The notes under the pieces: generated by a model
Seen by the model: only the letters and a program-made list of their open reading frames with translations
Databases searched by the model: none
Told to the model about the DNA's origin: nothing
Assembly: GCA_017411805.1 (NCBI GenBank)
Contig: JAFQPI010000063.1
Coordinates: 1 to 42,116, forward strand
Direction: 5' to 3'
Source of the DNA: Clostridia bacterium
GTDB lineage: Bacteria; Bacillota; Clostridia; Oscillospirales; CAG-272
DNA: 42,116 bases
Translations under genes and position numbers: made by a program
Part shown: piece by piece, positions 19,554 to 40,765 of the stretch
How the letters are laid out: the number at the start of each line of letters is the position of its first letter
How positions within the stretch are numbered: the stretch's first letter is position 1

Positions 19554-19763
19554 TCATTCGCCTGAAAGCTCATCGTCATTCTCGGGCGGAATATTGTTCC
19601 AGAGCGCGAGCATGACGTCGCTTACACATTCCTCGCGATCCTCCTTAATAGCCAGGATACCCGAGGTTACGTAATAACAGAGATCACCGAATTTTTTCTC
19701 GGTCTCCTTGATCGCGTCCTCGTTCCGAGACCAGAATAATTCAATAATTTTTTCGTCGGTCAT
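19554..19763 (-). pseudogene. Truncated ECF sigma factor (locus F)
   Basis: A 69-residue reading frame that matches only the first third of the neighbouring ECF sigma factors: TDEKIIELFWSRNEDAIKET, then EDREECVSDVMLALWNNIPP, i.e. region 2 without its end. It breaks off after IPPENDDELSGE, where intact paralogues continue with region 2.4, the linker and region 4. No partner gene follows. It keeps a good ribosome binding site (AAGGAGG) and the conserved bipartite motif upstream, but no vegetative promoter or TTGCACAAAA dyad is seen. Most likely a deletion remnant; a short regulatory product is possible. Confidence 0.75.
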
Positions 19764-19788
19764 GTACTTTCCTCCTTTTCGAATTTTC

Positions 19789-19828
19789 CCTTCACCTACA
19801 TAGACACGGTTTGAGACCGAAAAGTCAC
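19789..19828 (-). promoter_or_regulatory. Candidate ECF promoter motif of locus F
   Basis: On the minus strand GTGACT (19823-19828), 26 bases, then GGTGAAGG (19789-19796), preceded by an A-rich run. It matches the GTKACC-N25/26-RGTGAAGG pattern found before all sigma genes of this window. Confidence 0.6.
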
Positions 19829-19848
19829 GTTTTTTTATAAAAAAATTT

Positions 19849-20688
19849 TTATTCCCCTTGGATTTTAGTATTTTTAAGATAAGAATTGTAATCGTTATGT
19901 CTCTCTGATATTAAAGCAATATTATCATCGGTTAGATAACCTAAATCATACGCTTCTTCCAATCTCAAAATAGCATCGTCTTTGATAACATAAATTGATG
20001 CAGAATTGCTAAATGATATTGTATATCCCGCTATCTTATATTCAGTCATAACTGCTGCCATTCCGACCGAAACCAATATTACGCAATCATTGATTGTCCC
20101 ATAATATCTGCTATTATGATAATACTGTTCATTAAAGAAACAGTGTCTGACTATCTCATTAGCAAACTGACTTGCTCTTTTATCGGCTAATTCTGATGCT
20201 TCGGATTCGCTATATTTCTTGTTTACATTATTGATATAAAAGTCGTAAAATTCTTTATAACTGTTATCATATACTCTTTTATACCAAAGCTCATCTATTC
20301 TCAGCATCTCTTGAACTGTTAACAGCTCAAGATCATCAACGAACATGGGATAAGTGTATGGGACACCGTTTTCATCTGTTATAACATCCGACATATCATC
20401 CACCGTCCCGACACCCGCGGCGGAGTTGCCTCCCAACGATGCTATTAAATCGCCGAGCTTCGGAATACCGTTACTAAGCATGGGAGCGATTACCGAAAGC
20501 AAAACCATGCACGCCGCAAGGGCGGTGAATTGCTTCCAATACTTGAAGGGTGTCTTCCAAGTGCGGACGGGTTCTGCCGCAGTCATGGACGGCAGCTTCA
20601 GCATTACGGCAACGTCTCCTATGAGGTCGGTGTCGATGTAATCGAGCGCCTCGAGGAGCCTCGTATCCTTGATCATTTCGTTTTTCAT
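19849..20688 (-). CDS. Membrane partner of sigma A, putative anti-sigma factor with one surface module
   Basis: A 279-residue protein. The first 25 residues (KDTRLLEALDYIDTDLIGDV) carry the motif shared by all five partner proteins here. One transmembrane helix follows at about 52-72 (FTALAACMVLLSVIAPML). The outer part (about 120-275) is a single copy of an unnamed module: RIDELWYKR, SRYYGTINDCVILV, IAGYTISFSNSASIYV and RLEEAYDLGYLTDDNI. The ATG at 20688 overlaps the sigma stop codon by four bases (ATGA) and follows AAGGA; in-frame sequence further upstream lies inside the sigma gene. The segment for the outer domain (19849 to about 20340) is clearly AT-richer than the segment for the inner part. 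An anti-sigma role is inferred from position and topology; there is no zinc-binding HxxxCxxC motif. Confidence 0.8.
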   Translation of the reverse strand: MKNEMIKDTRLLEALDYIDTDLIGDVAVMLKLPSMTAAEPVRTWKTPFKYWKQFTALAACMVLLSVIAPMLSNGIPKLGDLIASLGGNSAAGVGTVDDMSDVITDENGVPYTYPMFVDDLELLTVQEMLRIDELWYKRVYDNSYKEFYDFYINNVNKKYSESEASELADKRASQFANEIVRHCFFNEQYYHNSRYYGTINDCVILVSVGMAAVMTEYKIAGYTISFSNSASIYVIKDDAILRLEEAYDLGYLTDDNIALISERHNDYNSYLKNTKIQGE

Positions 20689-21242
20689 AAGATAATTCCT
20701 TCCTTTCTTAAATAATCGGCAAGCTTTGCCCGCGTACGCATCAGAGTCATCTTGATCTTGCTCTCGCCGCAGGAGAATTGCTTTGCGATCTCTGAGGGCG
20801 ACATATCGAACCAATAGCGCATGAGAAAAGCACGCCTTTCAAAGTCGCCGAGGGTACGTAGAAATTTGCTTATGAGCTCGCCCGCGCGGCGCGATTCATA
20901 TTCCTCGGCGAGGTCCGTGCCGTCGTCGAGCATAGAGAGCAATTCCTCGTTAACTATTTGCACCTGCGCGCCGCGCTTCCATGCGTTGTTTGCGCGCGAT
21001 TTGTTTACTGCCTGCCGCCGCGTGACCTCGGAAATATACCCCGGGAGATTCTCGGGCTTTGCGGGCGGGATCGAGTTCCAGAGCGCGAGCATGACGTCGT
21101 TTACGCACTCATCCCGATCTTCTCGCAGACATAAGAAGTTCGACGCTATGTATCGGCAAAGACTGCCGTATTTATTCTCGATCTGACGCAAGGCTTCTTC
21201 ATCCCGTGCGAAAAACAGATCTATTATCTTCTCGTCCTTCAT
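20685..21242 (-). CDS. ECF-type sigma factor A
   Basis: A 185-residue sigma-70 family protein of the extracytoplasmic function type. Region 2 is residues about 4-70 (KDEKIIDLFFARDEEALRQI, EDRDECVNDVMLALWNSIPP), the linker has NKSRANNAWKRGAQVQIV, and region 4 is about 125-180 (ERRAFLMRYWFDMSPSEIAK, GESKIKMTLMRTRAKL). The ATG at 21242 is chosen because GGAGG lies six bases upstream and all paralogues start with MKDE or MTDE; an in-frame GTG upstream lies within the AGTGAAGG motif. It is transcribed divergently from sigma B and coupled to its membrane partner. Confidence 0.92.
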   Translation of the reverse strand: MKDEKIIDLFFARDEEALRQIENKYGSLCRYIASNFLCLREDRDECVNDVMLALWNSIPPAKPENLPGYISEVTRRQAVNKSRANNAWKRGAQVQIVNEELLSMLDDGTDLAEEYESRRAGELISKFLRTLGDFERRAFLMRYWFDMSPSEIAKQFSCGESKIKMTLMRTRAKLADYLRKEGIIL

Positions 21243-21262
21243 ATACTGCCTCCTTTCATGTT

Positions 21263-21301
21263 CCTTCACTTATATAGTAGTAAAAGATTTCCGCCGGTCA
21301 C
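21263..21301 (-). promoter_or_regulatory. Candidate ECF promoter motif of locus A
   Basis: On the minus strand GTGACC (21296-21301), 25 bases, then AGTGAAGG (21263-21270), with a TTTCAAAAAA tract before GTGACC. TATATA directly precedes AGTGAAGG and could serve as -10. Confidence 0.6.
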
Positions 21302-21332
21302 ATATTTTTTGAAAGTTTTTGATTTTTGTCGC

Positions 21333-21366
21333 ATTGCACAAAAGCGAAGATGTTCTTTTGTGCAAT
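21333..21366 (-). promoter_or_regulatory. TTGCACAAAA dyad in the leader of sigma A
   Basis: A 12-bp perfect stem, ATTGCACAAAAG (21333-21344) with CTTTTGTGCAAT (21355-21366), loop of ten bases. It lies just downstream of the vegetative promoter, so it is either an operator or an RNA hairpin. Confidence 0.8.
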
Positions 21367-21369
21367 ATT

Positions 21370-21398
21370 ATGGTATCATATTTCAAGCGGTTTGTCAA
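21370..21398 (-). promoter_or_regulatory. Vegetative promoter of sigma A
   Basis: On the minus strand TTGACA (21393-21398) and TACCAT (21370-21375), 17 bases apart. It is back to back with the sigma B promoter; the two -35 boxes are 13 bp apart. Confidence 0.65.
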
Positions 21399-21411
21399 TG
21401 GAAGATTTACA

Positions 21412-21440
21412 TTGACAAACCCGCGATTTCGTGTTATTAT
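21412..21440 (+). promoter_or_regulatory. Vegetative promoter of sigma B
   Basis: TTGACA (21412-21417) and TATTAT (21435-21440), spacer 17. The stretch 21412-21448 is repeated with one mismatch upstream of sigma C at 24498-24534. Confidence 0.75.
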
Positions 21441-21468
21441 TATAATGAAAGAATCACACCGTAATAAT

Positions 21469-21496
21469 GCACAAAAACCGCCGTGCGGTTTTGTGC
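21469..21496 (+). promoter_or_regulatory. GCACAAAA dyad in the leader of sigma B
   Basis: GCACAAAAACCG (21469-21480) pairs with CGGTTTTGTGC (21486-21496) with one bulged A. It is the most divergent of the five dyads but keeps GCACAAAA/TTTTGTGC. Confidence 0.7.
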
Positions 21497-21541
21497 GACA
21501 TGCCGAAAATTGAAATTTTCAAAAAAACTTTCCGAAAATCC

Positions 21542-21581
21542 GTTACCAAAGAGCCTTGTTTTACGGCTTATAGGATGAAGA
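21542..21581 (+). promoter_or_regulatory. Candidate ECF promoter motif of locus B
   Basis: GTTACC (21542-21547), 26 bases, then GATGAAGA (21574-21581), with TTTCCGAAAA before GTTACC. It ends about 15 bases before the ribosome binding site. Confidence 0.55.
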
Positions 21582-21602
21582 CATCCGAAGGGAGGTGCGC
21601 TT

Positions 21603-22160
21603 ATGAAGGATGAAAAAATTATTGAACTATTTTTTGCCCGCGACGAAGAAGCGATACGCGAGACACAGAATAAGTACGGAAATCTCTGCCTCTATATAGC
21701 CGCAAATTTTCTTGCACTCCGCGAGGACCGAGAGGAGTGCGTCAATGATACTTTGCTTGAGCTATGGCAAAGTATCCCGCCCGAAAAGCCGATAGATCTT
21801 CGCGCGTACGTGGCAACGATCGTCCGCAGCCGTGCAATAGACAAGTCGCGAGCGAACAACGCTTGGAAGCGCGGCGGCAACGTGCAGATCGTCGGCGAGG
21901 AATTCCTCTCTATGCTTGATGACGGATGCGATCTCGCAGAGGATTATGAATCTGTAAGGGCGGGAAGGGTCATAAATGATTATCTCGGAGCTCTCCCGAA
22001 GCCCGAGCGCGCGGTCTTCATCATGCGCTATTGGCTTGACGAGAGCATTACGAATATCTCAGCGCGGACGGGATTTTCCGAGGGGAGGATCAAGATGATG
22101 CTTATGCGTACGCGAAAAAAGCTTGAGGAAAGACTCAGATTGGAGGGTATTACGGTATGA
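21603..22160 (+). CDS. ECF-type sigma factor B
   Basis: A 185-residue ECF sigma factor and a close paralogue of A, C and E. Region 2 holds KDEKIIELFFARDEEAIRET and EDREECVNDTLLELWQSIPP; the linker has DKSRANNAWKRGGNVQIV; region 4 holds ERAVFIMRYWLDESITNISA and EGRIKMMLMRTRKKL. The ATG at 21603 has GGGAGG seven bases upstream. The linker-coding DNA around 21849-21884 is nearly identical to the same part of sigma C, which suggests recent duplication or gene conversion. The stop codon overlaps the start of the partner gene by four bases. Confidence 0.93.
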   Translation: MKDEKIIELFFARDEEAIRETQNKYGNLCLYIAANFLALREDREECVNDTLLELWQSIPPEKPIDLRAYVATIVRSRAIDKSRANNAWKRGGNVQIVGEEFLSMLDDGCDLAEDYESVRAGRVINDYLGALPKPERAVFIMRYWLDESITNISARTGFSEGRIKMMLMRTRKKLEERLRLEGITV

Positions 22161-24448
22161 AAAAGGACACAGCTTTTGAGGACAAGAGGCTTCTTGAAGC
22201 CATAAACCATATAGACTCCCGCTATATTTCCGAGGCGATGGAGTATTACGGTGACCTGCCCCCCGTCGGCGGCTTGCCCGAGAGGGACAAAAGGGTCACG
22301 CGCAAGTCGATAAGATACGCTCTCGCTATCGCGGCGTGCTTTTTGCTTATCGGCGCGGTGATACCGGTGGTGACGAATATTATTCAGAAGTTTTCCGGCA
22401 GCGCGGGGGGAAATCCCGAGGAAACCATTCTATCGCTTGAAGATTTCGTTTATGATACCGAGATCGACACCGATCACGTTATCACCGAGGCAGAGCTTGG
22501 AGCGATAAACAAACTCTGGCTCTATGAATTCGGTAAAAAGTTCGCTGAAACTCCCGAAGAGGCGATGAGGCGCGAGACGAAAGGAGACTTTTACTTCGGC
22601 AGATACGGCAGAACCTTCGTCTTTTACATAAAACAATTTAATATGGATATGGAATTCCGTTGGGGAAAGCACAACTTCGTTATGCCGTGGGGATTATTTT
22701 TCTTTATAAACGGAGATAAGGTATATACTCGCCAGGAGTTCATGGTGACAGATTTATTCACCCAAGAGCATATCGATACTCTGTATGACAGCTGTATGAA
22801 TTTTTATCCCACCTACGTACCCGTAATTACTCTTCCCGAGGGCGATCACGTGCTGAGCTCGGAGGAGCTTGCCGCAATGCAGGAGGCTTTCGACGGCTCG
22901 GTCAAATACAGTATTTTCGCATCTCTCGAAAGCACGATGGGAAGAAAACAGAACAGCTCATATTATTTCGGCAAATTCGGAGACACCGTCATAGTCTGGG
23001 TCAACGAGGTTGACGAGCTGAGACACGGCTTCGAGTGGAGCGGATATAATTTTGATTTTAATTTCGGAAGGCTGTATTTCTACGAAAACGGAAAGTTTTA
23101 TGACCATATCACCGCGGCGGAAAATAATATTATGACCGCGGAGGAGATCAAAGCCTTTTACGATCATTATTCCGAGCGTTTCGTGCCCTTCAACGCTATT
23201 CCCTACACCTGCCTTGAATTTACGGATGGCGTTGAGAAGCTTACCGATGCCGAGATGCGAAGCATAGACGAAGCTTACGCCGCTTGGAAATACGAACAGG
23301 AATACAAATACTATTATGAAATATATATCGAATCCAAGTACACCGAGCAGGAAGCGCACGAAAGCGCGGACAGAGCCGCATACAGACAATTAAGCAGAGA
23401 TAACCGCCACTTCTTCAAAGAGGAGAACTATCAGACCTTCCGTTATTACGGAAAGAAGGGGAATAAGGTGTTCCTTGTTGAAAAGGACCGCTATGCTGAC
23501 TGGAACGTTTTCGACCTCGCGGGATATAAATTCGTCATTGACGGCGGAGCGGGAGATGTTCTCGTCTACAGCGGCGGCGAGTTCACAGATCTGAGTGAGG
23601 CTTATGAAAAAGGAATGATCTCGAAAGAGGACGTCAAGTTCGTATATGAAAGACATCTGGCATATACGGAGTATTTCCGCGACGGAATGGAGGAGATCGC
23701 TCCGCCCGCAAGATTGAAGATCGGCGTGCCTTACAATGAATCACCCATCAAGCTCTCCGAAGAGCTTCAGCGCGAGATCGTATGGGAATATATTGCTGAT
23801 TCGACAAGGCTCGAGGAGGATCTGATGTCTTCCTATGCCGTACGCTGCTACGGCAGATCCGGCGACACCTACGCGGTTATGATCGACGGTCCTTGGTTAT
23901 ACACACAGGCTATGCGTTCTGAAATAGTTGCGGGATATACCTTCAGCTTCAGCGATGGACAGCAGATGTATATATATAAGCAAGGCGAATTCTACAGCCT
24001 CCGCAAGGCGTATGAGCTTGGAATCGTGACCGAGGAGGATATTGTTGCGATCAAGTGGGCGAAGACCGCGCCGTATACCTATGAAACCGCCACCGCGCCG
24101 ATCAAGATCGACGAGAAAGAAGTTGCTCTTTATATCAGCACCTATGCCGTATCAAAAGGCGGACATAAAAAGGGAGCGGTATATTCTATGAGGTGTTACG
24201 GAAAAGCCGAGCGAGGGTATGCGGTTTTCATCGATTGCACCGACAAGGTATACGCGGAAACAAGGACGGTTGAAACAGTCTGCGGATATGAGTTCATCTA
24301 TCCAACCGAGCAGACAATGCTCTTCTGTTATAATTGGAGCGATACTTCAAGTCTTGCAGAAGCCCTTGAAAACGATTATCTTGAGGAATCCGAGCTGAAG
24401 GAAATATATGAAACCTATCGGGCGGAGCATCCGGAGCTATATAAATAG
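22157..24448 (+). CDS. Membrane partner of sigma B with five copies of a surface module
   Basis: A 763-residue protein. Residues 1-30 carry the partner motif (EDKRLLEAINHIDSRYISEA); one transmembrane helix lies at about 53-76 (LAIAACFLLIGAVIPVV). The outer part consists of five degenerate copies of a module of about 105-140 residues, roughly at 108-215, 232-340, 361-503, 531-637 and 650-756. Each copy has an acidic start (LTDAEMRSIDEAY), a beta strand pair with RYYGKKGNKVFLV, an AGYxFxF strand, a YKQGEFYSL-type turn, then EAYELGIVTEEDI. The partner of sigma A has one copy of the same module. I do not know a named domain for it. It probably sits outside the membrane and binds a ligand or peptidoglycan; this is inference. 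Translation is coupled to sigma B (ATGA). Confidence 0.8.
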   Translation: MKKDTAFEDKRLLEAINHIDSRYISEAMEYYGDLPPVGGLPERDKRVTRKSIRYALAIAACFLLIGAVIPVVTNIIQKFSGSAGGNPEETILSLEDFVYDTEIDTDHVITEAELGAINKLWLYEFGKKFAETPEEAMRRETKGDFYFGRYGRTFVFYIKQFNMDMEFRWGKHNFVMPWGLFFFINGDKVYTRQEFMVTDLFTQEHIDTLYDSCMNFYPTYVPVITLPEGDHVLSSEELAAMQEAFDGSVKYSIFASLESTMGRKQNSSYYFGKFGDTVIVWVNEVDELRHGFEWSGYNFDFNFGRLYFYENGKFYDHITAAENNIMTAEEIKAFYDHYSERFVPFNAIPYTCLEFTDGVEKLTDAEMRSIDEAYAAWKYEQEYKYYYEIYIESKYTEQEAHESADRAAYRQLSRDNRHFFKEENYQTFRYYGKKGNKVFLVEKDRYADWNVFDLAGYKFVIDGGAGDVLVYSGGEFTDLSEAYEKGMISKEDVKFVYERHLAYTEYFRDGMEEIAPPARLKIGVPYNESPIKLSEELQREIVWEYIADSTRLEEDLMSSYAVRCYGRSGDTYAVMIDGPWLYTQAMRSEIVAGYTFSFSDGQQMYIYKQGEFYSLRKAYELGIVTEEDIVAIKWAKTAPYTYETATAPIKIDEKEVALYISTYAVSKGGHKKGAVYSMRCYGKAERGYAVFIDCTDKVYAETRTVETVCGYEFIYPTEQTMLFCYNWSDTSSLAEALENDYLEESELKEIYETYRAEHPELYK

Positions 24449-24457
24449 AATGAATTT

Positions 24458-24491
24458 GGGACCGAGTCATTAATTCCGACTCGGTCCCTTT
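24458..24491 (+). terminator. Terminator of locus B
   Basis: GGGACCGAGTC (24458-24468) pairs with GACTCGGTCCC (24478-24488), followed by TTT. It separates locus B from the locus C promoter, which begins only a few bases later. Confidence 0.85.
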
Positions 24492-24497
24492 AGCTTA

Positions 24498-24526
24498 TTG
24501 ACAAACCCACGATTTCGTGTTATTAT
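24498..24526 (+). promoter_or_regulatory. Vegetative promoter of sigma C
   Basis: TTGACA (24498-24503) and TATTAT (24521-24526), spacer 17. Nearly identical to the sigma B promoter region. Confidence 0.75.
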
Positions 24527-24554
24527 TATAATGAAGAAAAGTTTCAATGTCATC

Positions 24555-24586
24555 TTGCACAAAATCAAGCCTTCCTTTTTGTGCAA
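24555..24586 (+). promoter_or_regulatory. TTGCACAAAA dyad in the leader of sigma C
   Basis: TTGCACAAAA (24555-24564) and TTTTGTGCAA (24577-24586), loop of 12 bases, located about 30 bases downstream of the -10 element. Confidence 0.8.
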
Positions 24587-24609
24587 CAGGACGAAATTTA
24601 AAAATCGGC

Positions 24610-24649
24610 GCGACGGCAGGGGTATTTTTTGCGACATATAGGATGAGAG
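24610..24649 (+). promoter_or_regulatory. Candidate ECF promoter motif of locus C
   Basis: GCGACG (24610-24615), 26 bases, then GATGAGAG (24642-24649). It is the weakest match to GTKACC-N26-RGTGAAGG, but the spacing and the ATATAG segment before the second box are kept. Confidence 0.4.
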
Positions 24650-24672
24650 GACATCTGAAAGGAGGAAAGTCT

Positions 24673-25230
24673 ATGAAGGACGAGAAGATAATTGATCTGT
24701 TTTTCGCGCGGGACGAAGAAGCGCTGCGGCAGGTTGAGGAGAAGTACGGAGATCTCTGCAATTACGTTGCCTCGAATTTTCTTTGCATGCGTGAGGACAG
24801 GGAAGAGTGCGTAAACGACGCGCTTCTTGCCCTCTGGAATTCGATCCCGCCCGAGAAGCCCGAAAGTCTTTCGGCTTATATATCGTCGCTTGCGAGGAAT
24901 CTGGCGATAAGCCGCTCGCGCGCGAACAACGCTTGGAAGCGGGGCGGCAACGTGCAGGTGGTGAACGACGAGGTACTTGCCTTGATCCCGGATGATCGCA
25001 GCCTTGCCGATGAGTACGAATCGCGCCTTGCGGGCAGGGTCATCAATGATTTTATCGGAGAATTGAGCAAGAGCGAGCGCAAGGTCTTCGTTTTGCGTTA
25101 TTGGTTTGACGCGAGCGACCGTCAGATCGCGGATCAGACGGGATTCTCGCATTCGAAGATCAGATCCATGCTTGCGAGGTTGCGCAAGAGACTTGCCGAA
25201 AGGCTCGGAAAGGAGGGCATTATAGTATGA
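24673..25230 (+). CDS. ECF-type sigma factor C
   Basis: A 185-residue ECF sigma factor. Region 2 holds KDEKIIDLFFARDEEALRQV and EDREECVNDALLALWNSIPP; the linker has SRSRANNAWKRGGNVQVV; region 4 holds ERKVFVLRYWFDASDRQIAD and HSKIRSMLARLRKRL. The ATG at 24673 follows GGAGGAAAGTCT; in-frame sequence upstream runs through the leader hairpin and gives no sigma-like protein. It is coupled by four overlapping bases to a very large LRR partner. Confidence 0.93.
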   Translation: MKDEKIIDLFFARDEEALRQVEEKYGDLCNYVASNFLCMREDREECVNDALLALWNSIPPEKPESLSAYISSLARNLAISRSRANNAWKRGGNVQVVNDEVLALIPDDRSLADEYESRLAGRVINDFIGELSKSERKVFVLRYWFDASDRQIADQTGFSHSKIRSMLARLRKRLAERLGKEGIIV

Positions 25231-28877: not shown

Positions 28878-28885
28878 AAGCAGAA

Positions 28886-28938
28886 ATTAATAAACTGATG
28901 CTGACTGCGCAAAGCGCAGTCAGCATCAGTTTATTAAT
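28886..28938. terminator. Perfect 25-bp stem hairpin, bidirectional terminator
   Basis: Positions 28886-28910 pair without mismatch with 28914-28938 around an AAA loop (core GATGCTGACTGCGC). It lies between the convergent LRR partner gene and the dehydrogenase gene. Confidence 0.85.
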
Positions 28939-28950
28939 ATACATTTATTA

Positions 28951-30273: not shown

Positions 30274-30361
30274 AAAAATATTTCCTCCTGATCGATATGA
30301 TCATATAATTTCTTATGTTCCGGCCGGGATCGTAAGATCTCGGCGATTTCGTAAACGCCTG

Positions 30362-30382
30362 AAAACGGATTATTTCCGTTTT
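30362..30382 (-). terminator. Compact terminator overlapping the TIR-TPR stop codon
   Basis: AAAACGGA (30362-30369) pairs with TCCGTTTT (30375-30382); the loop contains the stop codon. On the minus strand the stem ends in TTTT. Rather short, so only a candidate. Confidence 0.45.
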
Positions 30383-32808: not shown

Positions 32809-32820
32809 GGAGGCCTCCTG

Positions 32821-34680: not shown

Positions 34681-34717
34681 TTTAATATGTACCTCATAGC
34701 CAAATTATTTCATTATA

Positions 34718-34746
34718 ATTATAGCACAAGGAAGGGGATTTGTCAA
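34718..34746 (-). promoter_or_regulatory. Promoter of the oxidoreductase/TIR-TPR transcript
   Basis: On the minus strand TTGACA (34741-34746) and TATAAT (34718-34723), spacer 17, both consensus. It diverges from the sigma D promoter; the -35 boxes are 25 bp apart. Confidence 0.88.
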
Positions 34747-34771
34747 TCGGATTATTTGCCGATATAGGTAC

Positions 34772-34800
34772 TTGACAAAAGACTTTTTGCATGATATCAT
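34772..34800 (+). promoter_or_regulatory. Vegetative promoter of sigma D
   Basis: TTGACA (34772-34777) and TATCAT (34795-34800), spacer 17. Confidence 0.8.
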
Positions 34801-34827
34801 TAAACAAGCAAAAAGCAGCGGGTCAGA

Positions 34828-34859
34828 TTGCACAAAAATTCCTCTTTCTTTTTGTGCAA
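34828..34859 (+). promoter_or_regulatory. TTGCACAAAAA dyad in the leader of sigma D
   Basis: TTGCACAAAAA (34828-34838) and TTTTTGTGCAA (34849-34859), loop of ten pyrimidine-rich bases. Confidence 0.8.
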
Positions 34860-34891
34860 GTCCACAAATTTGAAAAACTTTTCAAAAAGCT

Positions 34892-34931
34892 GAAACCAAA
34901 ATGCCCTTTTGCGGTACTTGATAAGTGAAGG
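34892..34931 (+). promoter_or_regulatory. Candidate ECF promoter motif of locus D
   Basis: GAAACC (34892-34897), 26 bases, then AGTGAAGG (34924-34931), with TTTTCAAAAAGC before the first box. Confidence 0.55.
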
Positions 34932-34983
34932 GCCCTATAGTCAAATCGGTTTGAATTGACAATCTTGAAAGGAGGAGAAGTCC

Positions 34984-35559
34984 ATGACAGATGAAAGGAT
35001 AATAGAGCTGTTTTTTGAGCGCGACGAAAAGGCGCTTTCGGAAATACAGGCAAAATACGAAAATTTCAGCCTCACGGTCGCCTCGAATATTTTATCTATG
35101 CGCGAGGACCGCGAGGAATGTGTAAACGACATGCTTCTGGCACTCTGGAATGCTATTCCTCCCGAAAGACCGCGTTCGCTCAAGTCCTATATTGCAAAGA
35201 TCGTGCGCAATCTGGCACTGAAAAAGTCGCGCTCCGAGAACCTATGGAGACGGTGCGTTAATTTCACAGACACCGTAGATGAATTTCTTGAGGAACTCCC
35301 CGACACCTTCGACCTTTGCGAGCAGTTTGAAGCGGCACTCGCGGGAAGGATCATCAATGAAATGCTTGAAACGCTTCCGGGGCATGAGCGGCAGATCTTC
35401 GTGCTCCGATACTATTTCGGCGAGAATGTTGCGGCTGTCGCGGATGATATGGGATTTACCGTAGGAAAGGTTAAATCCATTCTGATGAGAACCCGCAAGA
35501 AGCTTGCGGACAAACTAAAAAAGGAGGGTATTTTGTATGAAAAAGGGAAACAGAATTGA
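34984..35559 (+). CDS. ECF-type sigma factor D
   Basis: A 191-residue ECF sigma factor, the most divergent of the set. Region 2 holds TDERIIELFFERDEKALSEI and EDREECVNDMLLALWNAIPP. The linker differs from the others (KKSRSENLWRRCVNFTDTVD instead of NNAWKRGGNVQIV). Region 4 holds ERQIFVLRYYFGENVAAVAD and VGKVKSILMRTRKKL. The ATG at 34984 has GGAGG seven to eight bases upstream. Its last 23 bases overlap the start of the partner gene, instead of the usual four, so the C-terminus is longer by about six residues (EKGKQN). Confidence 0.92.
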   Translation: MTDERIIELFFERDEKALSEIQAKYENFSLTVASNILSMREDREECVNDMLLALWNAIPPERPRSLKSYIAKIVRNLALKKSRSENLWRRCVNFTDTVDEFLEELPDTFDLCEQFEAALAGRIINEMLETLPGHERQIFVLRYYFGENVAAVADDMGFTVGKVKSILMRTRKKLADKLKKEGILYEKGKQN

Positions 35560-36799
35560 AGACAAGAGGCTTCTCGGCGCGATAGATTATATTGATGACC
35601 GCTTTATTGCCGAAGCCGCACAAAAGATCAAGCAAAGATCCACAGCAACAGCTACGGAAAAAACAAGCAAGAAAAAGCATTTCGGCTATCTTTCGCGTCT
35701 TGCAGCATGCCTTATCATTATGGGAGCAGTGCTTCCGATCGTAACATATCTGCTGCGCCATTATGCCGATCATTCAGACCATCCCGCCGGCACCGCTTCT
35801 CCTCCCGCGGGTATCGCATCCGATAATACATCCTCCGTGCTATACGCCGATGACACCTCTGCGGAAAACGACCCTCTGCATGACGGAAGCAAGGGCTTGA
35901 TCTATCAGATCAACAATGACGGCACGAGCTACACACTTGTATCGCGCGGAAGCTGCAGCACCGCCGAGGTGCATGTTGCCTCAACCTACGACGGTCTGCC
36001 GGTTACCGCGATCGGAGACTTGGCTTTTGCTAATTTTACCGAGTGCGAGTTGCTCATTATCCCCGAAACGGTCACTTCGATCGGCATTGGTGCCTTCAAG
36101 GACTGCAAAAACCTCGAAAGCTGCGATATTTCGGACACTGTTGAAAGGATCGGAGCCAATGCCTTTGAAAATTGTATATCGCTGAATACCCTTTTCCTTC
36201 CCGACAGCCTTGAGGTTATAGAATCGGGATTGTTTAAGAATTGTACCTCGCTGAGAACTGTTGAGGCGCGAAACAAGCTGAAACGTATTGACGCAGGTGC
36301 CTTTGATGGCTGTACTGCGCTTTCCTCGCTGAATTTTAATGGTACAAAAAGCCAATGGGAAAGTGTTTCCTTGGACAATAATTGGAATACGGGCAGCGAC
36401 ATCCGTCGGATCGATGCCAACTCCGGAAGCTTCAGTTTAACTCCTTACGTTGGAAGTGACGGTCTTAAATACAAGTGCGACATTACGGCAACCGTTTTGG
36501 GCATTGGAAGCTGTAAAGAAAAGGATATAGTAATTGCCGACCGTTACAGAGACCTTCAGGTATGTTTCATAGGCAAAGAGGCATTCGCCGATTGCACCCA
36601 AATAGAAAGTGTCAAGATCCCCGATATTATGTGGATCATCGAGGAGCGTGCTTTCGCGGGCTGCACAAATCTTACCGATGTTTACTACCAGGGAACAATC
36701 GATGAGTGGCAATATGTCGTAAAAGAAGCCGATTGGAACAAGGATTGCCCCTTCACGGTAGTCCATTGTCTGGACGGAGATGTTTCTGTCTCTGACTGA
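35537..36799 (+). CDS. Membrane LRR partner of sigma D
   Basis: A 420-residue protein. Residues 1-28 carry the partner motif (EDKRLLGAIDYIDDRFIAEA), and one transmembrane helix lies at about 51-75 (LSRLAACLIIMGAVLPIV). The linker is short and rich in Ala/Pro/Ser, without ETT repeats. From about 115 on there are two LRR blocks with the same caps as in C and E: GLIYQINNDG...VASTYDGLPVTAIG, about six LRR_5 units, then GTKSQWESV; and GLKYKCDITATVLGIGSCKEKDIV, one or two LRR units, GTIDEWQYV...VVHCLDGD. It is the smallest LRR partner here and could represent the minimal sensor. Start codon ATG at 35537, within the sigma D gene. Confidence 0.83.
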   Translation: MKKGNRIEDKRLLGAIDYIDDRFIAEAAQKIKQRSTATATEKTSKKKHFGYLSRLAACLIIMGAVLPIVTYLLRHYADHSDHPAGTASPPAGIASDNTSSVLYADDTSAENDPLHDGSKGLIYQINNDGTSYTLVSRGSCSTAEVHVASTYDGLPVTAIGDLAFANFTECELLIIPETVTSIGIGAFKDCKNLESCDISDTVERIGANAFENCISLNTLFLPDSLEVIESGLFKNCTSLRTVEARNKLKRIDAGAFDGCTALSSLNFNGTKSQWESVSLDNNWNTGSDIRRIDANSGSFSLTPYVGSDGLKYKCDITATVLGIGSCKEKDIVIADRYRDLQVCFIGKEAFADCTQIESVKIPDIMWIIEERAFAGCTNLTDVYYQGTIDEWQYVVKEADWNKDCPFTVVHCLDGDVSVSD

Positions 36800-36813
36800 C
36801 CATAATATGATCA

Positions 36814-36841
36814 GATCCCTCCCGCAAAGGCGGGAGGGATC
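36814..36841 (+). terminator. Terminator of locus D
   Basis: GATCCCTCCCGC (36814-36825) pairs perfectly with GCGGGAGGGATC (36830-36841), loop AAAG. The following sequence is only moderately T-rich. Confidence 0.8.
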
Positions 36842-36866
36842 TTGCGTTATCAATAAGCTGTACCTA

Positions 36867-36895
36867 TTGACAAATCCGTTGCTTCGTGCTAATAT
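36867..36895 (+). promoter_or_regulatory. Vegetative promoter of sigma E
   Basis: TTGACA (36867-36872) and TAATAT (36890-36895), spacer 17. Confidence 0.75.
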
Positions 36896-36904
36896 TATTG
36901 CGGA

Positions 36905-36938
36905 ATTGCACAAAATCCCTCCTCGCTTTTTGTGCAAT
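36905..36938 (+). promoter_or_regulatory. TTGCACAAAA dyad in the leader of sigma E
   Basis: ATTGCACAAAA (36905-36915) and TTTTGTGCAAT (36928-36938), loop of 12 bases. Confidence 0.8.
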
Positions 36939-36980
36939 CATCCAAAAGATTGGCTTTTAGAGAAATATTTCCGAAAAATT

Positions 36981-37020
36981 GTTACCTTTAAGGTGCAAAA
37001 TGCAACTTATTTAGTGAAGG
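36981..37020 (+). promoter_or_regulatory. Candidate ECF promoter motif of locus E
   Basis: GTTACC (36981-36986), 26 bases, then AGTGAAGG (37013-37020), with TTTCCGAAAAATT before the first box. Confidence 0.6.
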
Positions 37021-37046
37021 GACATTTTTGCAAAGGAGGTAAGTCT

Positions 37047-37604
37047 ATGAAGGATGAAAGAATAGTTGAAATGTATTGGGAGCGCAACGAGGACGCCATC
37101 CGCGAGACAGAGAAGAAATACGGCGATTATTGCCACTATCTTGCGGAAAATTTCCTTTCGAGCCGCGAGGATCGCGAGGAATGTATAAATGACGCCATGC
37201 TTGCGCTCTGGAACAATATCCCGCCCGAGAGGCCGAAAAGTCTTTTTGCCTATCTCTCGGGTATAATCAGAAAGCTTTCTGCGGAGCGTTCGCGCTCAAA
37301 CAACGCCTGGAAGCGCGGCGGACAGGTTCAGATCGTCAGCGAGGAGTTCCTCATGATGCTCGATGACGGCAGCGACCTTGCGGCGGACTACGAGGCAAAG
37401 CGAGCGAGCGAGGTCATGAACAGATTCCTCGAGCGTTCGAGCGCGGGGGACAGAACGATATTTGTAATGCGATTCTGGTTCAATGAAAGTTATCGCGATA
37501 TCTGCGCGCGTACAGGCTTTGCCGAGGGCAAGGTAAAGGTTACGGTCTCGCGTATGCGTAAGAAGCTGCGCGAGGCGCTGAAAGAGGAGGGAATCATCGT
37601 ATGA
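37047..37604 (+). CDS. ECF-type sigma factor E
   Basis: A 185-residue ECF sigma factor. Region 2 holds KDERIVEMYWERNEDAIRET and EDREECINDAMLALWNNIPP; the linker has ERSRSNNAWKRGGQVQIV; region 4 holds DRTIFVMRFWFNESYRDICA and EGKVKVTVSRMRKKL. The N-terminus is closest to the truncated sigma F (both have W-x-R-N-E-D-A-I). The ATG at 37047 follows AAAGGAGGTAAGTCT; the reading frame is open far upstream through the leader, but that part has no sigma-like sequence. It is coupled by four bases (ATGA) to a 1054-residue LRR partner. Confidence 0.93.
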   Translation: MKDERIVEMYWERNEDAIRETEKKYGDYCHYLAENFLSSREDREECINDAMLALWNNIPPERPKSLFAYLSGIIRKLSAERSRSNNAWKRGGQVQIVSEEFLMMLDDGSDLAADYEAKRASEVMNRFLERSSAGDRTIFVMRFWFNESYRDICARTGFAEGKVKVTVSRMRKKLREALKEEGIIV

Positions 37605-40600
37605 ATAATTATAAGGATAAAAGACTCCTTGAAATGCTCGATTATTTGGATCCGAAATTTATCGAGGAGGCAGGAAAGTATTATAAACACGTTCCCGTCA
37701 GGGGAATTCCGAGCACAAAGAGCGATCCAAAGAAGCAGATCAAGTATATAGTCGCGCTTGCGGCATGTCTCTTGATGCTTGGCGCGTTCATTCCCATGGT
37801 GACCTATATAATTCAGAATCGCCCGTATATCGGCGGAATCCATGAGACAACGGGCGGCGATACCACTCTCGCGCCCGAGATCACGAGCGAGGAGATCACA
37901 AGCTCTCCCGAGCCCGAGTCATCCGCACCCGAGACCACAGAGCCCGAGCCTACGCACGAGACGACCGAGCCTCTATACGACGGCACGACCGCACCTCGTG
38001 AAGAAACATCCGCTCCCGAGGAAACGACCGCTGATGAAACGACCGCTGAGGAAACGACCGCCGTGCCCGAACCGGAACACGACGGCTCATACGGGCTTAA
38101 GTATCGGGTCGACGGAAATCGTGCCGTTCTCGTCGGAATCGGCACTTGTACCGACACCGATATCGTCATCGCGTCGAAATATAACGGAGTACCCGTGACG
38201 GAGATCGGTGACAGTGCGTTCCTTGGCTGTAACGGAATAAAGAGCGTTCTTATTCCCGAGAGCGTAAGCGCCATCGGCGCACACGCTTTCAGCTTGTGCG
38301 AAAATCTTGAAAGGGTTAATATTCCAAATAAGGTCACAAGTATCGAGACCTATGCCTTCCACGCCTGCAAGAGCCTGAAAGTCATTGATATCGGCAACGT
38401 GACAAAAATTGACGATTTTGCTTTCACTATGTGTGAAAATTTGGAGATGATTAACTTCGGAAAGAGCCTGCAGAGCATAGGTTATCAGGCGTTCATGCAT
38501 TGTTCAAGCCTCAAAGAGCTTACCCTCCCCGATAGCCTTACAACCATAGGTGATTGGGCGTTTGATTGCTCAAGCCTCAGACGTGTAAGCGTCGGCAAGA
38601 ACATCAAAAAGATCGGCGAGTCTGCCTTCCTCATGTGCTCGGAGCTTTCGGAATTCGTCTACCGAGGCACGCGCGAGTCCTGGAAGTCAGTGACGCTTGG
38701 AGAGGATTGGAAATCTCGGCAGATTACATTGATCAAATGCTCGGACGGTGATATCGATCTCAATGCGCCTCCCGAAGATGACGGAAGCCGCGGACTCGTC
38801 TATCAGCTCAGCAAGGACAAAAAGAGCGCGTCACTTGTCGGCATCGGCACCTGCACGGATAAGAATATCGTGATCGCGTCAACGTTTGGCGGTGTTCCCG
38901 TCGTCTCGGTCGCGGAAGGGGTATTCAAGGACGATCCGAATATCACGGGAATTCATATCCCCGCAACTGTCACGACTCTGAACGGACTTTTCTACAATTG
39001 CCAGAACGTCAAGAGTCTGACGGTCGATCCCGATCATCCGAGCTTCTATTCTGCGGGTAACTGTATAATAGATAAGCAAAGCAAGACGATCCTGGTCGGC
39101 TGCAACGGAAGCGTTATTCCGACCGACGGAAGCATACTGAGGATAGGAACATCCTCCTTTGACGGCTGCAACGGAATCACCGAATTGACTATTCCCGACG
39201 GCGTTCTCATTATCTACGATTATGCGTTTGATAACTGTATCAATCTGGGATCGGTAAAAATCCCCGACAGCGTCACAAAGATCAATAGTGCGTTTAACGG
39301 ATGCACGTCGCTCCGAAACGTTGAATTGCCTTCGGAAATGGAATGGGTCGGCGGATTTTCGGGATGTACTTCGATCAGGGAGATCACTTTGCCGAAAAAG
39401 GGAAAGCTTTCTTCGGGAGCGTTCAAGGACTGTACTGCGCTTGAAAGCGTGACCGTTCCTTCGGGTACAACCTCTTTGAACTCTACTTTTGAAGGTTGCA
39501 TAAGCCTTAAGAGCGTGATCCTGCCGGATACTCTGACGAGCATAAGCAAGTCCTCCTTCTTAAACTGCAAGTCACTCGAAAGCATAACGATCCCGAAAGG
39601 CGTAACAGAGTTGAATGATGCCGCGTTCAAAAATTGCCCGAAGCTTTTGACGGTCAATTTCGCGGGTACTGCCGAGGAATGGAGAAGCATCTTCAAGGCG
39701 GTCGATTGGAATCGGAATTGTAATTTCAGCGCCGTCCATTGTTCGGACGGAGACGCGCTTCCGGGTCCCGAATCGGACGGAAGCATCGGGCTTGAATACG
39801 TCTTTGATATCAAAAAACGATATGCAACCTTGATAGGCATAGGCACGTGTACCGATTCCGAGATCATTCTTCCCACAACGTACGGCGGGGTACCCGTAAC
39901 GGCGATCTCACAGGCTTTCGGCGGAAATTTCACAAGCATCGTGATCTCCGACAGCGTAACCGATATAGAAGAGGGCGCGTTTGCCGACTGTCCGAATTTG
40001 AGAAGCATACATTTCCCGTCGAGTGTGAATAACATCCCCGTGGATGGATTATTCAATTGCAAATATCTCGAATCCCTGAGCGTTGATCCCGAAAACCCGA
40101 ATTATACCTCGTCGGGAAATTGCATTATCGATAAGAGAACGGGTATTCTGATACTCGGAACAAATAACGGAACTATTCCCTCCGACGGAAGCGTCAATGA
40201 AATCGGAGCGAAGGCGTTTATTAACCGTTCCGGACTTACGGATATCGTCATTCCCGAGGGCGTGACTTCTATCGGAGAATACGCATTTGCAAATTGCACC
40301 GCACTTAAGTCGGTATCCATGCCGAATAGCTTGATTGAGATCAATCATCATGCTTTTTCGGGTTGTAGCTCACTTAAGGAAATGAAAATAGTGGCGGCAG
40401 TTGCGATCTTTGATTATGCCTTCAAGGACTGCACGGGGCTTGAGAGCATCGTCCTTCCCGATGGCTGCGAGGTTTTGCATGGGATGTTATTTGAAAACTG
40501 TATCGCCCTTAAGACGGTCAAGCTTCCCGCGACGCTGAAGAGTCTTAATTGCCTTTTTGTAAACTGTCCGTCGCTCGAAAGTATAACTCTCCCCGCTACT

Positions 40601-40765
40601 CTGACTCAGATCGATTCAAATCCCTTTGTCGATTGCGATAATCTGAGAGATTGCAGATTCGCGGGTAGCGTCGAAGAATGGAACGCGGTGGAAAAGCCTT
40701 TGTTCTGGAGCCGCGGCTCTGCTTTTACGATGATCCATTGCTCGGACGGAGATGCAACACCTTAA
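37601..40765 (+). CDS. Large membrane LRR partner of sigma E with three LRR blocks
   Basis: A 1054-residue protein. Residues 1-26 carry the partner motif (KDKRLLEMLDYLDPKFIEEA); one transmembrane helix lies at about 49-71 (IVALAACLLMLGAFIPMV). Residues about 80-158 are a Pro/Glu/Thr linker with ETTAE-type units. Three LRR blocks follow, starting near residues 160, 393 and 725. Each opens with GLxYxxxxxxxxLVGIGTCTD and NGVPV or GGVPV, has LRR_5 units, and closes with GT(R/A)EEW...HCSDGD. Some LRR units are irregular (SGTTSLNSTFEGC), suggesting divergence. It is followed by a strong terminator. A sensing role for the sigma E regulon is inferred. Confidence 0.85.
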   Translation: MNNYKDKRLLEMLDYLDPKFIEEAGKYYKHVPVRGIPSTKSDPKKQIKYIVALAACLLMLGAFIPMVTYIIQNRPYIGGIHETTGGDTTLAPEITSEEITSSPEPESSAPETTEPEPTHETTEPLYDGTTAPREETSAPEETTADETTAEETTAVPEPEHDGSYGLKYRVDGNRAVLVGIGTCTDTDIVIASKYNGVPVTEIGDSAFLGCNGIKSVLIPESVSAIGAHAFSLCENLERVNIPNKVTSIETYAFHACKSLKVIDIGNVTKIDDFAFTMCENLEMINFGKSLQSIGYQAFMHCSSLKELTLPDSLTTIGDWAFDCSSLRRVSVGKNIKKIGESAFLMCSELSEFVYRGTRESWKSVTLGEDWKSRQITLIKCSDGDIDLNAPPEDDGSRGLVYQLSKDKKSASLVGIGTCTDKNIVIASTFGGVPVVSVAEGVFKDDPNITGIHIPATVTTLNGLFYNCQNVKSLTVDPDHPSFYSAGNCIIDKQSKTILVGCNGSVIPTDGSILRIGTSSFDGCNGITELTIPDGVLIIYDYAFDNCINLGSVKIPDSVTKINSAFNGCTSLRNVELPSEMEWVGGFSGCTSIREITLPKKGKLSSGAFKDCTALESVTVPSGTTSLNSTFEGCISLKSVILPDTLTSISKSSFLNCKSLESITIPKGVTELNDAAFKNCPKLLTVNFAGTAEEWRSIFKAVDWNRNCNFSAVHCSDGDALPGPESDGSIGLEYVFDIKKRYATLIGIGTCTDSEIILPTTYGGVPVTAISQAFGGNFTSIVISDSVTDIEEGAFADCPNLRSIHFPSSVNNIPVDGLFNCKYLESLSVDPENPNYTSSGNCIIDKRTGILILGTNNGTIPSDGSVNEIGAKAFINRSGLTDIVIPEGVTSIGEYAFANCTALKSVSMPNSLIEINHHAFSGCSSLKEMKIVAAVAIFDYAFKDCTGLESIVLPDGCEVLHGMLFENCIALKTVKLPATLKSLNCLFVNCPSLESITLPATLTQIDSNPFVDCDNLRDCRFAGSVEEWNAVEKPLFWSRGSAFTMIHCSDGDATP

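What the first reader, a model, noticed from the sequence alone, without database searches (positions are those of the whole stretch)
19554..40765. Five clustered ECF sigma / membrane-sensor modules plus one remnant
Seen in the sequence: five ECF sigma genes, each overlapping by 4 or 23 bases a gene for a single-pass membrane protein with the same inner motif, the same type of helix and a large outer region that differs in kind (an unnamed repeat module or BspA-type LRR blocks). Known: bacterial sigma/anti-sigma pairs often use a membrane protein with an outer sensing part, and RsgI proteins of Clostridium combine an inner sigma-binding part with outer carbohydrate-binding modules. Inference: this is a surface-sensing family in which LRR proteins control dedicated sigma factors, expanded by duplication and swapping of the outer part. 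I know of no described system in which BspA-like LRR proteins act as anti-sigma factors.
Basis: partly seen in the sequence, partly recalled or inferred. Interest (0 to 1): 0.9.

Follow-up and report, generated by a model that had tools for sequence, protein, structure and literature searches.

The report
Swappable surface sensors paired with sigma factors
A gut Clostridia genome carries about 29 gene pairs, each one switch for gene expression plus one membrane protein that probably holds the switch off, and the outer half of that protein (in nine cases a leucine-rich-repeat surface domain) has been exchanged repeatedly, which suggests an unstudied repertoire of surface sensors.

Summary
In detail: five ECF sigma genes, each overlapping a single-pass membrane protein gene, plus one sigma remnant. 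They belong to 29 such modules in this genome. Across held relatives 105 of 112 modules overlap by 4 nt, 110 of 112 partners look N-in, and 64 of 65 window-type inner segments adjoin a sigma gene (the exception is a clipped copy). The inner segment is short (median 49 residues), like minimal class II anti-sigma factors; no curated family matches it over cut-off. Nine of 29 outer parts are BspA-type LRR. Swapping is direct: a database protein is identical to a window partner through the membrane region (95 of 95 residues) and 28% identical outside. All five window operons, 20 of 29 in the genome, show an ECF-type promoter, so autoregulation is likely; one such promoter also precedes a surface-protein operon. 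An inverted repeat the finder did not mention occurs at nine exact sites in the genome, all before these sigma genes. Best explanation: transmembrane anti-sigma sensors released by proteolysis. Inhibition, ligand and protease are not shown; canonical RseP was not found in the four genomes rich in window-type modules. New variant of a known kind.

The parts
19563..19763 (-). Remnant: 5' piece of an ECF sigma gene with its promoter (promoter block starts at 19804); 19579-19846 is 97.4% identical to module C41:25987
19849..20688 (-). Partner a, 279 aa: inner segment 1-53, helix 54-72, one copy of the unnamed outer module (104-274)
20685..21242 (-). ECF sigma a, 185 aa
21257..21310 (-). ECF-type promoter of module a (TGTGACC ... 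TACTACTATATAAGTGAAGG)
21334..21365 (.). Inverted repeat TTGCACAAAA-N12-TTTTGTGCAA before sigma a
21370..21398 (-). Sigma-A-like promoter before module a (TTGACA-17-TACCAT)
   Evidence: consensus match only
21412..21440 (+). Sigma-A-like promoter before module b (TTGACA-17-TATTAT)
   Evidence: consensus match only
21467..21498 (.). Variant inverted repeat before sigma b
21534..21587 (+). ECF-type promoter of module b (CGTTACC ... CGGCTTATAGGATGAAG)
   Evidence: lowest score of the 22 sites
21603..22160 (+). ECF sigma b, 185 aa
22157..24448 (+). Partner b, 763 aa: inner segment, helix 55-73, four hits of the unnamed outer module (one nearly full length, three partial)
24498..24526 (+). Sigma-A-like promoter before module c (TTGACA-17-TATTAT)
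   Evidence: consensus match only
24555..24586 (.). Inverted repeat before sigma c
24602..24655 (+). ECF-type promoter of module c (CGCGACG ... TTGCGACATATAGGATGAG)
24673..25230 (+). ECF sigma c, 185 aa
25227..28877 (+). Partner c, 1216 aa: inner segment, helix 53-71, Thr/Glu-rich stalk, BspA-type LRR_5 (E 2e-266)
34772..34800 (+). Sigma-A-like promoter before module d (TTGACA-17-TATCAT)
   Evidence: consensus match only
34828..34859 (.). Inverted repeat before sigma d
34884..34937 (+). ECF-type promoter of module d (TGAAACC ... GGTACTTGATAAGTGAAGG); same type precedes a surface-protein operon on C15
34984..35559 (+). ECF sigma d, 191 aa
35537..36799 (+). Partner d, 420 aa: inner segment, helix 55-73, short LRR_5 region
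36867..36895 (+). Sigma-A-like promoter before module e (TTGACA-17-TAATAT)
   Evidence: consensus match only
36906..36937 (.). Inverted repeat before sigma e
36973..37026 (+). ECF-type promoter of module e (TGTTACC ... GCAACTTATTTAGTGAAGG)
37047..37604 (+). ECF sigma e, 185 aa
37601..40765 (+). Partner e, 1054 aa: inner segment, helix 50-68, Thr/Glu-rich stalk, LRR_5 blocks (E 4.8e-140)

Best explanation
Each module is an autoregulated ECF sigma factor with its own transmembrane anti-sigma sensor. Shown by sequence: overlapping gene pairs, one inner segment type, one membrane helix with positive charge on the N-terminal side, exchangeable outer parts, and, in most operons, an ECF-type promoter whose -10 follows the sigma type. 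Inferred: the short inner segment holds sigma2 and sigma4 as class II anti-sigma factors (CnrY) do; a cue sensed by the outer part (LRR, repeat module, beta-propeller) triggers proteolysis; the conserved xAA in the helix then serves as a ClpXP-type degron as reported for RsgI; the freed sigma turns on its own operon and a few surface genes. A sigma-A-like promoter upstream would supply the resting amount of the pair. The cue is not known; surface glycans or host or neighbour-cell proteins are the guess for LRR outer parts.
For: Adjacency: 64 of 65 distinct inner segments have a sigma gene ending within 80 nt; 118 of 118 full-length sigma genes with at least 300 nt downstream are followed by an ORF, 106 of them at -4. 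Topology: net positive charge before the helix in 110 of 112. Coupling: sigma distance versus inner-segment distance r 0.617 among 29 own paralogues (0 of 2000 permutations) against 0.34 for the outer juxtamembrane part. Outer swap at constant inner part: P0001/P0012 100% inner and helix, 28% outside; inner swap at constant outer part: P0036/P0034 50% inner, 96% outside. Autoregulation: the promoter profile trained on own upstreams passes the 99% control level in 35 of 40 near and 24 of 43 far independent upstreams against 2 of 83 reversed; the -10 follows sigma distance (r 0.49; 0.365 without the closest 15% of pairs; 0 of 1000 each), the spacer less (0.172, 0 of 1000) and not after that filter (0.025, 226 of 1000). 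Degron-like xAA in 99 of 112 helices, shuffled mean 66.8, maximum 79. One-ORF sigma-partner proteins exist; in the prediction for one of them (P0043) the inner segment has pLDDT 74-87, the following 30 residues 28-29, and sigma2/sigma4 lie closer to anti-sigma-bound chains (rmsd 5.6-15.8) than to RNAP-bound ones (21.8 and more).
Against: No direct contact or inhibition was tested. pTM of the fused model is 0.51, its membrane helix is not modelled, its frame fusion may be a sequencing error, and it is a relative, not a window pair; the tool gives no contacts. Among the 20 own near modules the inner segment (r 0.375, 25 of 2000) is hardly better than the juxtamembrane control (0.329, 42 of 2000), and the helix scores higher than either (0.695, 4 of 2000). 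Linked genes duplicate together, so correlation alone does not prove contact. The profile scan found the promoter at 20 of 29 own modules, not at nine. Canonical RseP (TIGR00054) is over cut-off in 7 of 13 genus genomes but in none of G000, G003, G004, G007, the four with 12-17 window-type inner segments (assemblies 72-86% complete); M50 proteins occur at three places in the own genome. Promoter searches found one target operon besides sigma genes.
Confidence: 0.78

Rival explanations
1. The partner is not an anti-sigma factor but the main target: each sigma gene drives its own operon so that a variable surface protein is made, and the inner segment is only a membrane-insertion or tethering signal. 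The family would be a surface-variation system.
For: 21 of 22 composite promoter sites lie at module sigma genes or the remnant (that DNA was picked around sigma and LRR genes, so it is a biased sample), and outer parts are exchanged often.
Against: The inner segment is conserved together with the sigma genes and tracks sigma clearly better than the adjacent outer part in 3 of 4 sets compared; it is kept across LRR, propeller and unrelated outer parts, and 12 other LRR ORFs in held own DNA do without it.
Confidence: 0.12
2. The partner is a positive co-factor or membrane anchor that activates the sigma factor when the outer part is occupied, without degradation.
For: No canonical RseP over cut-off in the four genomes with many window-type modules; inner segment shorter than class I anti-sigma domains (PMC7406223 passages).
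Against: Short anti-sigma factors such as CnrY are known (PMC7406223 passages); xAA in the helix is enriched, as in RsgI (PMC12203970 passages).
Confidence: 0.07
3. The clustering is an artefact of decaying, selfish or misassembled duplicates with no present function.
For: One remnant sigma gene; the genome is a fragmented assembly of 73 contigs, 84.68% complete.
Against: Frames are intact in 29 modules, -10 elements and sigma covary, and the same type recurs in three other genus genomes and in named assemblies.
Confidence: 0.03

Closest known systems
SigI/RsgI pairs of Clostridium thermocellum (PMC12203970; passages, some of them from the abstract)
   Same: Several paralogous sigma/anti-sigma pairs in one genome; inner N-terminal part, one helix, divergent outer sensor parts; xAA in the helix
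   Different: Sigma here is ECF, not sigma-I; no RsgI N-terminal family in the Pfam scans; outer parts are LRR, an unnamed module or propellers rather than carbohydrate-binding modules; 29 pairs here against eight pairs plus one lone RsgI there
RsiV/SigV and other DUF4179 anti-sigma factors of Firmicutes (PMC6066255; passages)
   Same: ECF sigma controlled by a membrane anti-sigma factor in Firmicutes, freed by proteolysis
   Different: Only one of five window partners gives a DUF4179 hit, below threshold (15.5 bits, cut-off 30.1); outer parts unrelated
[quoted passage not shown] entry 4cxf)
   Same: Short inner part with two helices that touches sigma4 and sigma2; two short helices predicted here
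   Different: No sequence similarity found; CnrY belongs to a metal-sensing system (recalled)
BspA-type LRR surface proteins (Pfam LRR_5)
   Same: Outer part of three window partners and nine of 29 in the genome
   Different: Here joined through a helix to a sigma-linked inner segment; no paper on such a pair in the listings (4 of 4, 15 of 15, 15 of 23 and 25 of 32 hits shown)

Membership tests
ECF sigma factors | Sigma70 region 2 and region 4 of an ECF-size protein | tested here: met
   PF04542 and PF08281 over cut-off in all five; TIGR02937 67.7 to 77.3 bits, cut-off 42.9
Transmembrane anti-sigma factors (functional class) | Gene next to the sigma gene, N-in single-pass membrane protein | tested here: met
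   (topology from hydropathy and charge only)
Transmembrane anti-sigma factors (functional class) | Binds and inhibits the cognate sigma factor | not testable with these tools
   only an indirect prediction on a relative
Class I anti-sigma domain (zinc-finger or RskA/RseA type) | Match to a known class I domain model; about 100 residues | tested here: not met
   no such Pfam family at E 1 in five window partners or among the eight families found in 29 partners at E 0.01; inner part median 49 residues
[quoted passage not shown]
   median 49 residues before the helix; two helices predicted, at low confidence alone and 74-87 in the fused relative
[quoted passage not shown]
   no PDB sequence match for the inner profile; no contacts obtainable from the model
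RsgI | RsgI N-terminal domain and a sigma-I partner | tested here: not met
   no such family in the Pfam scans; partner is ECF
RsgI | xAA site in the helix | tested here: met
   99 of 112, shuffled maximum 79; function as degron not tested
DUF4179 / RsiV | DUF4179 over the gathering score | tested here: not met
   15.5 bits against 30.1 in one partner, not reported in four
Regulated intramembrane proteolysis by RseP | Canonical RseP in the genome | tested here: inconclusive
   28.3 bits against 147.55 in the own genome; assembly 84.68% complete; M50 matches at three places, of which two ORFs tested gave no RseP model
BspA-type LRR (LRR_5) | LRR_5 over cut-off | tested here: met
   partners c, d, e

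The most novel reading that the evidence does not exclude
A receptor repertoire: some 29 one-to-one ECF sigma/transmembrane anti-sigma pairs in one genome, with outer parts (LRR blocks, a module of unassigned fold, propellers) recombined between inner segments and promoter dialects that follow the sigma type; about half of the window-type operons also share an upstream 30-bp inverted repeat that could place them under one common regulator.
Probability: 0.4. Interest if true: 0.8.

Novelty: new variant of a known kind. Interest (0 to 1): 0.62.

Why it matters
BspA-type LRR proteins are usually read as adhesins (recalled). If here they report contact to a dedicated sigma factor, a class of gut surface proteins becomes a class of sensors with a readable output: the sigma promoters can be used as reporters to screen for the ligand. 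The swapped outer parts on a constant inner part also give natural chimaeras for testing how outside binding releases a sigma factor.

Tried and rejected
Regulon by strict pattern: CTWATWWRRTGAAGG with one mismatch gave 9 sites, 6 at modules, control 5, too weak for a regulon. Promoter patterns of sigma c and e found only their own sites (control 1 and 0).

In-frame leader start: the conserved (A/G)TGAAGG after the -10 looked like a start codon, but its distance to the sigma start shows no frame preference (my count by hand, 6 of 24 in frame); rejected, left unexplained.

Anti-Shine-Dalgarno loop: loops of the inverted repeat are pyrimidine-rich on the sense strand (17 of 32, antisense 1 of 32), and pair with the SD better than their reverse complements (p 0.0004), but no better than shuffled loops (p 0.20); not supported. 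Arm changes in imperfect copies are mostly one-sided (66 against 4 symmetric), so operator or RNA hairpin stays open. No Rfam family reached its gathering score in the window.

First mixed alignment for the fused protein (A6) misplaced sigma rows and was replaced by A7. Covariation between single residues of sigma and inner segment was not attempted; too few pairs. A duplicate own row (q017) was in the first Mantel run and was removed for (one search used the list). Of 118 full sigma genes five were dropped (score at or below 120, or gap over 30 nt) before the set of 113. Four of 68 promoters have a mis-parsed -35. No shuffled control was printed for the tree changes.
Full report
OBSERVATION. 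The window is contig C61 of a 73-contig, 84.68% complete genome. Its five ECF sigma genes and partners are where the finder put them. All five sigma proteins match ECF models over the cut-off. Overlaps are 4 nt in four pairs and 23 nt in one. The remnant is the 5' third of a sixth sigma gene with its promoter; 268 nt are 97.4% identical to the module at C41:25987.

WHOLE GENOME. A profile of the five sigma proteins finds 29 intact relatives of this type plus the remnant (a more distant ECF gene, C65:35306, and seven weak hits left out). All 29 are followed by a membrane protein gene, 28 at -4 and one at -23 (the script chose the start nearest to -4). The inner profile finds 18 places below E 0.001. 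Pfam on the 29 partners at E 0.01: LRR_5 in nine, a beta-propeller family in two, DUF5050 in one, a weak ABC-2 family in one. The unnamed module of partners a and b is in 8 of 29 own partners and 22 of 112 in all, never together with LRR. On a quick sigma tree at least eight changes are needed to explain LRR versus other outer parts in 112 modules, six for the own ones (no shuffled control seen).

RELATIVES. One scan of named genomes gave 66 loci, mostly ruminant gut Clostridia assemblies. Window-type inner segments occur in 4 of 13 genus genomes, 12 to 17 each. In a family-wide draw of 118 genomes they occur in the own genome and, once each, in two others. Sigma genes whose partners begin with more distant motifs, such as IDDxxIEEA, occur in Oscillospiraceae and Lachnospiraceae assemblies. 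Of 118 distinct full sigma genes with at least 300 nt downstream, 118 have an ORF behind them and 106 overlap by 4 nt. Of 65 distinct window-type inner segments in held DNA, 64 have a sigma gene within 80 nt; the other is a clipped copy of a window gene.

INNER SEGMENT. It is short: median 49 residues before the helix, at most 56 in 102 of 112. Net charge before the helix is positive in 110 of 112. No PDB sequence matches (best E 1.7). This size is that of class II anti-sigma factors, whose two helices touch sigma4 and sigma2 (PMC7406223, passages). The helix region carries xAA in 99 of 112 (27 of 29 own), more than any of 500 shuffles (mean 66.8, maximum 79); in RsgI such sites are read by ClpXP after intramembrane cleavage (PMC12203970, passages). 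The parallel is an inference.

COUPLING AND SWAPPING. Sigma distances correlate with inner-segment distances: r 0.617 (29 own), 0.375 (20 own near), 0.431 (60 near, all genomes), 0.37 (52 far); with the outer juxtamembrane part 0.34, 0.329, 0.224 and -0.056; with the helix 0.581, 0.695, 0.563 and 0.193. 'Near' means a sigma score over 245 bits against the profile of the 29. So inner segments go with sigma better than the outer part does, but not clearly so in the own near set, and there and in the near set of all genomes the helix is linked more tightly than the inner segment. Exchange of parts is directly visible: P0012 equals window partner a in 95 of 95 residues through the membrane region and then shares 28%; P0004/P0017 and P0030/P0032 show the same; P0036/P0034 share 96% outside but 50% inside.

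PROMOTERS. Upstream of most sigma genes lies an ECF-type promoter: a -35 such as TGTAACC, TGAAACC or CGCGACG, a spacer, a -10 such as GGTACTT, GCGACAT or CGTCTT, then (A/G)TGAAGG. In 63 of 68 parsed cases 12-13 nt lie between the 8-nt -35 and 9-nt -10 boxes as I cut them. The profile was trained on 30 own upstreams including the remnant. On independent genomes it passes the 99% control level in 35 of 40 near and 24 of 43 far upstreams, against 2 of 83 reversed ones. In 323,078 bases of own DNA, picked around sigma and LRR genes, 22 composite sites were found, control 3: 20 before module sigma genes (5 of 5 in the window, 20 of 29 in all; one of them 229 nt upstream), one before the remnant, one before a 533-aa ECF-like gene on C71. 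The -10 follows sigma distance (r 0.49; 0.365 without the closest 15% of pairs; 0 of 1000 each). The -35 (0.277, then 0.065 with 65 of 1000) and the spacer (0.172, then 0.025 with 226 of 1000) lose it after that filter, and the TGAAGG part shows none. This supports that each sigma reads its own operon. The promoter of sigma d also occurs before two adjacent genes on C15 for secreted proteins of 498 and 469 aa with a TGD-helix-RKKR end like a sortase signal (signal type recalled). That is the one candidate target outside sigma genes.

A SECOND SHARED ELEMENT. The exact core TGCACAAA-N14-TTTGTGCA occurs at nine sites in the genome (pattern allowed N9-17; backward control 0); all nine lie before window-type sigma genes (with the places). 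In near modules 32 of 60 match at 16 of 20 arm positions or better, in far ones 2 of 52; two of the 32 best matches sit at -250 and -269. With the position limited to -160 to -100, 32 near modules again reach 16. In 7 of the 9 own modules with the exact repeat a sigma-A-like promoter with at least 10 of 12 consensus bases lies upstream of it; such matches are also common by chance (19 against 9.7 in shuffles of a 6-kb part). Whether the repeat is an operator or a leader hairpin is open.

STRUCTURE. For partner a the outer module is confident and has no convincing PDB match; the inner part alone is poor, 43-61. Database proteins with sigma and partner in one frame exist (P0027-P0029, P0031, P0037-P0043, P0054, P0059-P0062, P0098). 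Junctions differ between near-identical copies, so frameshifts, real or from sequencing, are likely. They allowed one prediction of a pair in one chain (P0043): inner helices 187-194 and 199-204 in blocks of 74-87, membrane region not modelled, pTM 0.51. Sigma2/sigma4 placement is nearer to anti-sigma-bound chains (rmsd 5.6-6.2 FlgM, 7.4-8.5 RsiG, 7.8 ChrR, 10.8 and 13.4 RsiW, 11.9 RskA, 14.3-15.8 RsbN, MucA, RseA) than to RNAP-bound ones (21.8 and more). This is suggestive only.

PROTEASES. Canonical RseP is over cut-off in 7 of 13 genus genomes but not in the four with 12-17 window-type inner segments, nor in G009 and G010. M50 matches lie at three places in the own genome; two of these ORFs gave no RseP model. 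The site-2 step is therefore open.

LITERATURE. Searches for ECF or anti-sigma together with LRR or BspA listed no paper on such a pair (listings only, the last two shown in part). The large ECF reclassification paper is not held, so a group number cannot be given and earlier mention there is not excluded.

VERDICT. The architecture, its expansion, the swapping and the autoregulatory promoters are well supported; anti-sigma function is the best reading at about 0.78; the sensed cue and the protease are unknown. It is a new variant of the known ECF/transmembrane anti-sigma kind.

Noticed in passing
C61:21335, 24556, 34829, 36907; C9:46720; C17:12953; C31:28317; C41:24388; C65:6882 (own genome): A 30-bp inverted repeat (TGCACAAA-N14-TTTGTGCA) found at nine exact sites in the genome, each before a window-type ECF sigma gene; operator or leader hairpin unknown.
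   Followed up: partly
Downstream of most module -10 elements (e.g. window 24643-24650, 37014-37020): A conserved (A/G)TGAAGG in the presumed first transcribed bases; it does not vary with sigma type and has no frame relation to the sigma start.
   Followed up: partly
L215:1200-4133 (own contig C15): Two tandem secreted, probably wall-anchored proteins without a Pfam family, behind a promoter of the sigma d type.
   Followed up: partly
window:1333-2961 and 11 further LRR ORFs in held own DNA: LRR proteins without the inner segment or a sigma gene; by a simple pattern 9 LRR ORFs are in modules, 12 are not.
   Followed up: partly
L063:1986-3587 (own contig C71): ECF-like sigma with a long extra C-terminal part (533 aa), behind a similar promoter.
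   Followed up: no
L050:2100-4613 (own contig C29): A sigma partner of 838 aa with about twelve hydrophobic segments instead of a single-pass protein; possibly the one weak ABC-2 match.
   Followed up: no
window:30370-32808: Protein with a TIR domain followed by Sel1 and TPR repeats between the two groups of modules.
   Followed up: no
G000, G003, G004, G007: No canonical RseP over cut-off in the four genus genomes that carry many window-type modules, while 7 of the other 9 have it.
   Followed up: partly
P0027-P0029, P0031, P0037-P0043, P0054, P0059-P0062, P0098: Database proteins with sigma and partner in one frame; junctions vary between near-identical copies.
   Followed up: partly
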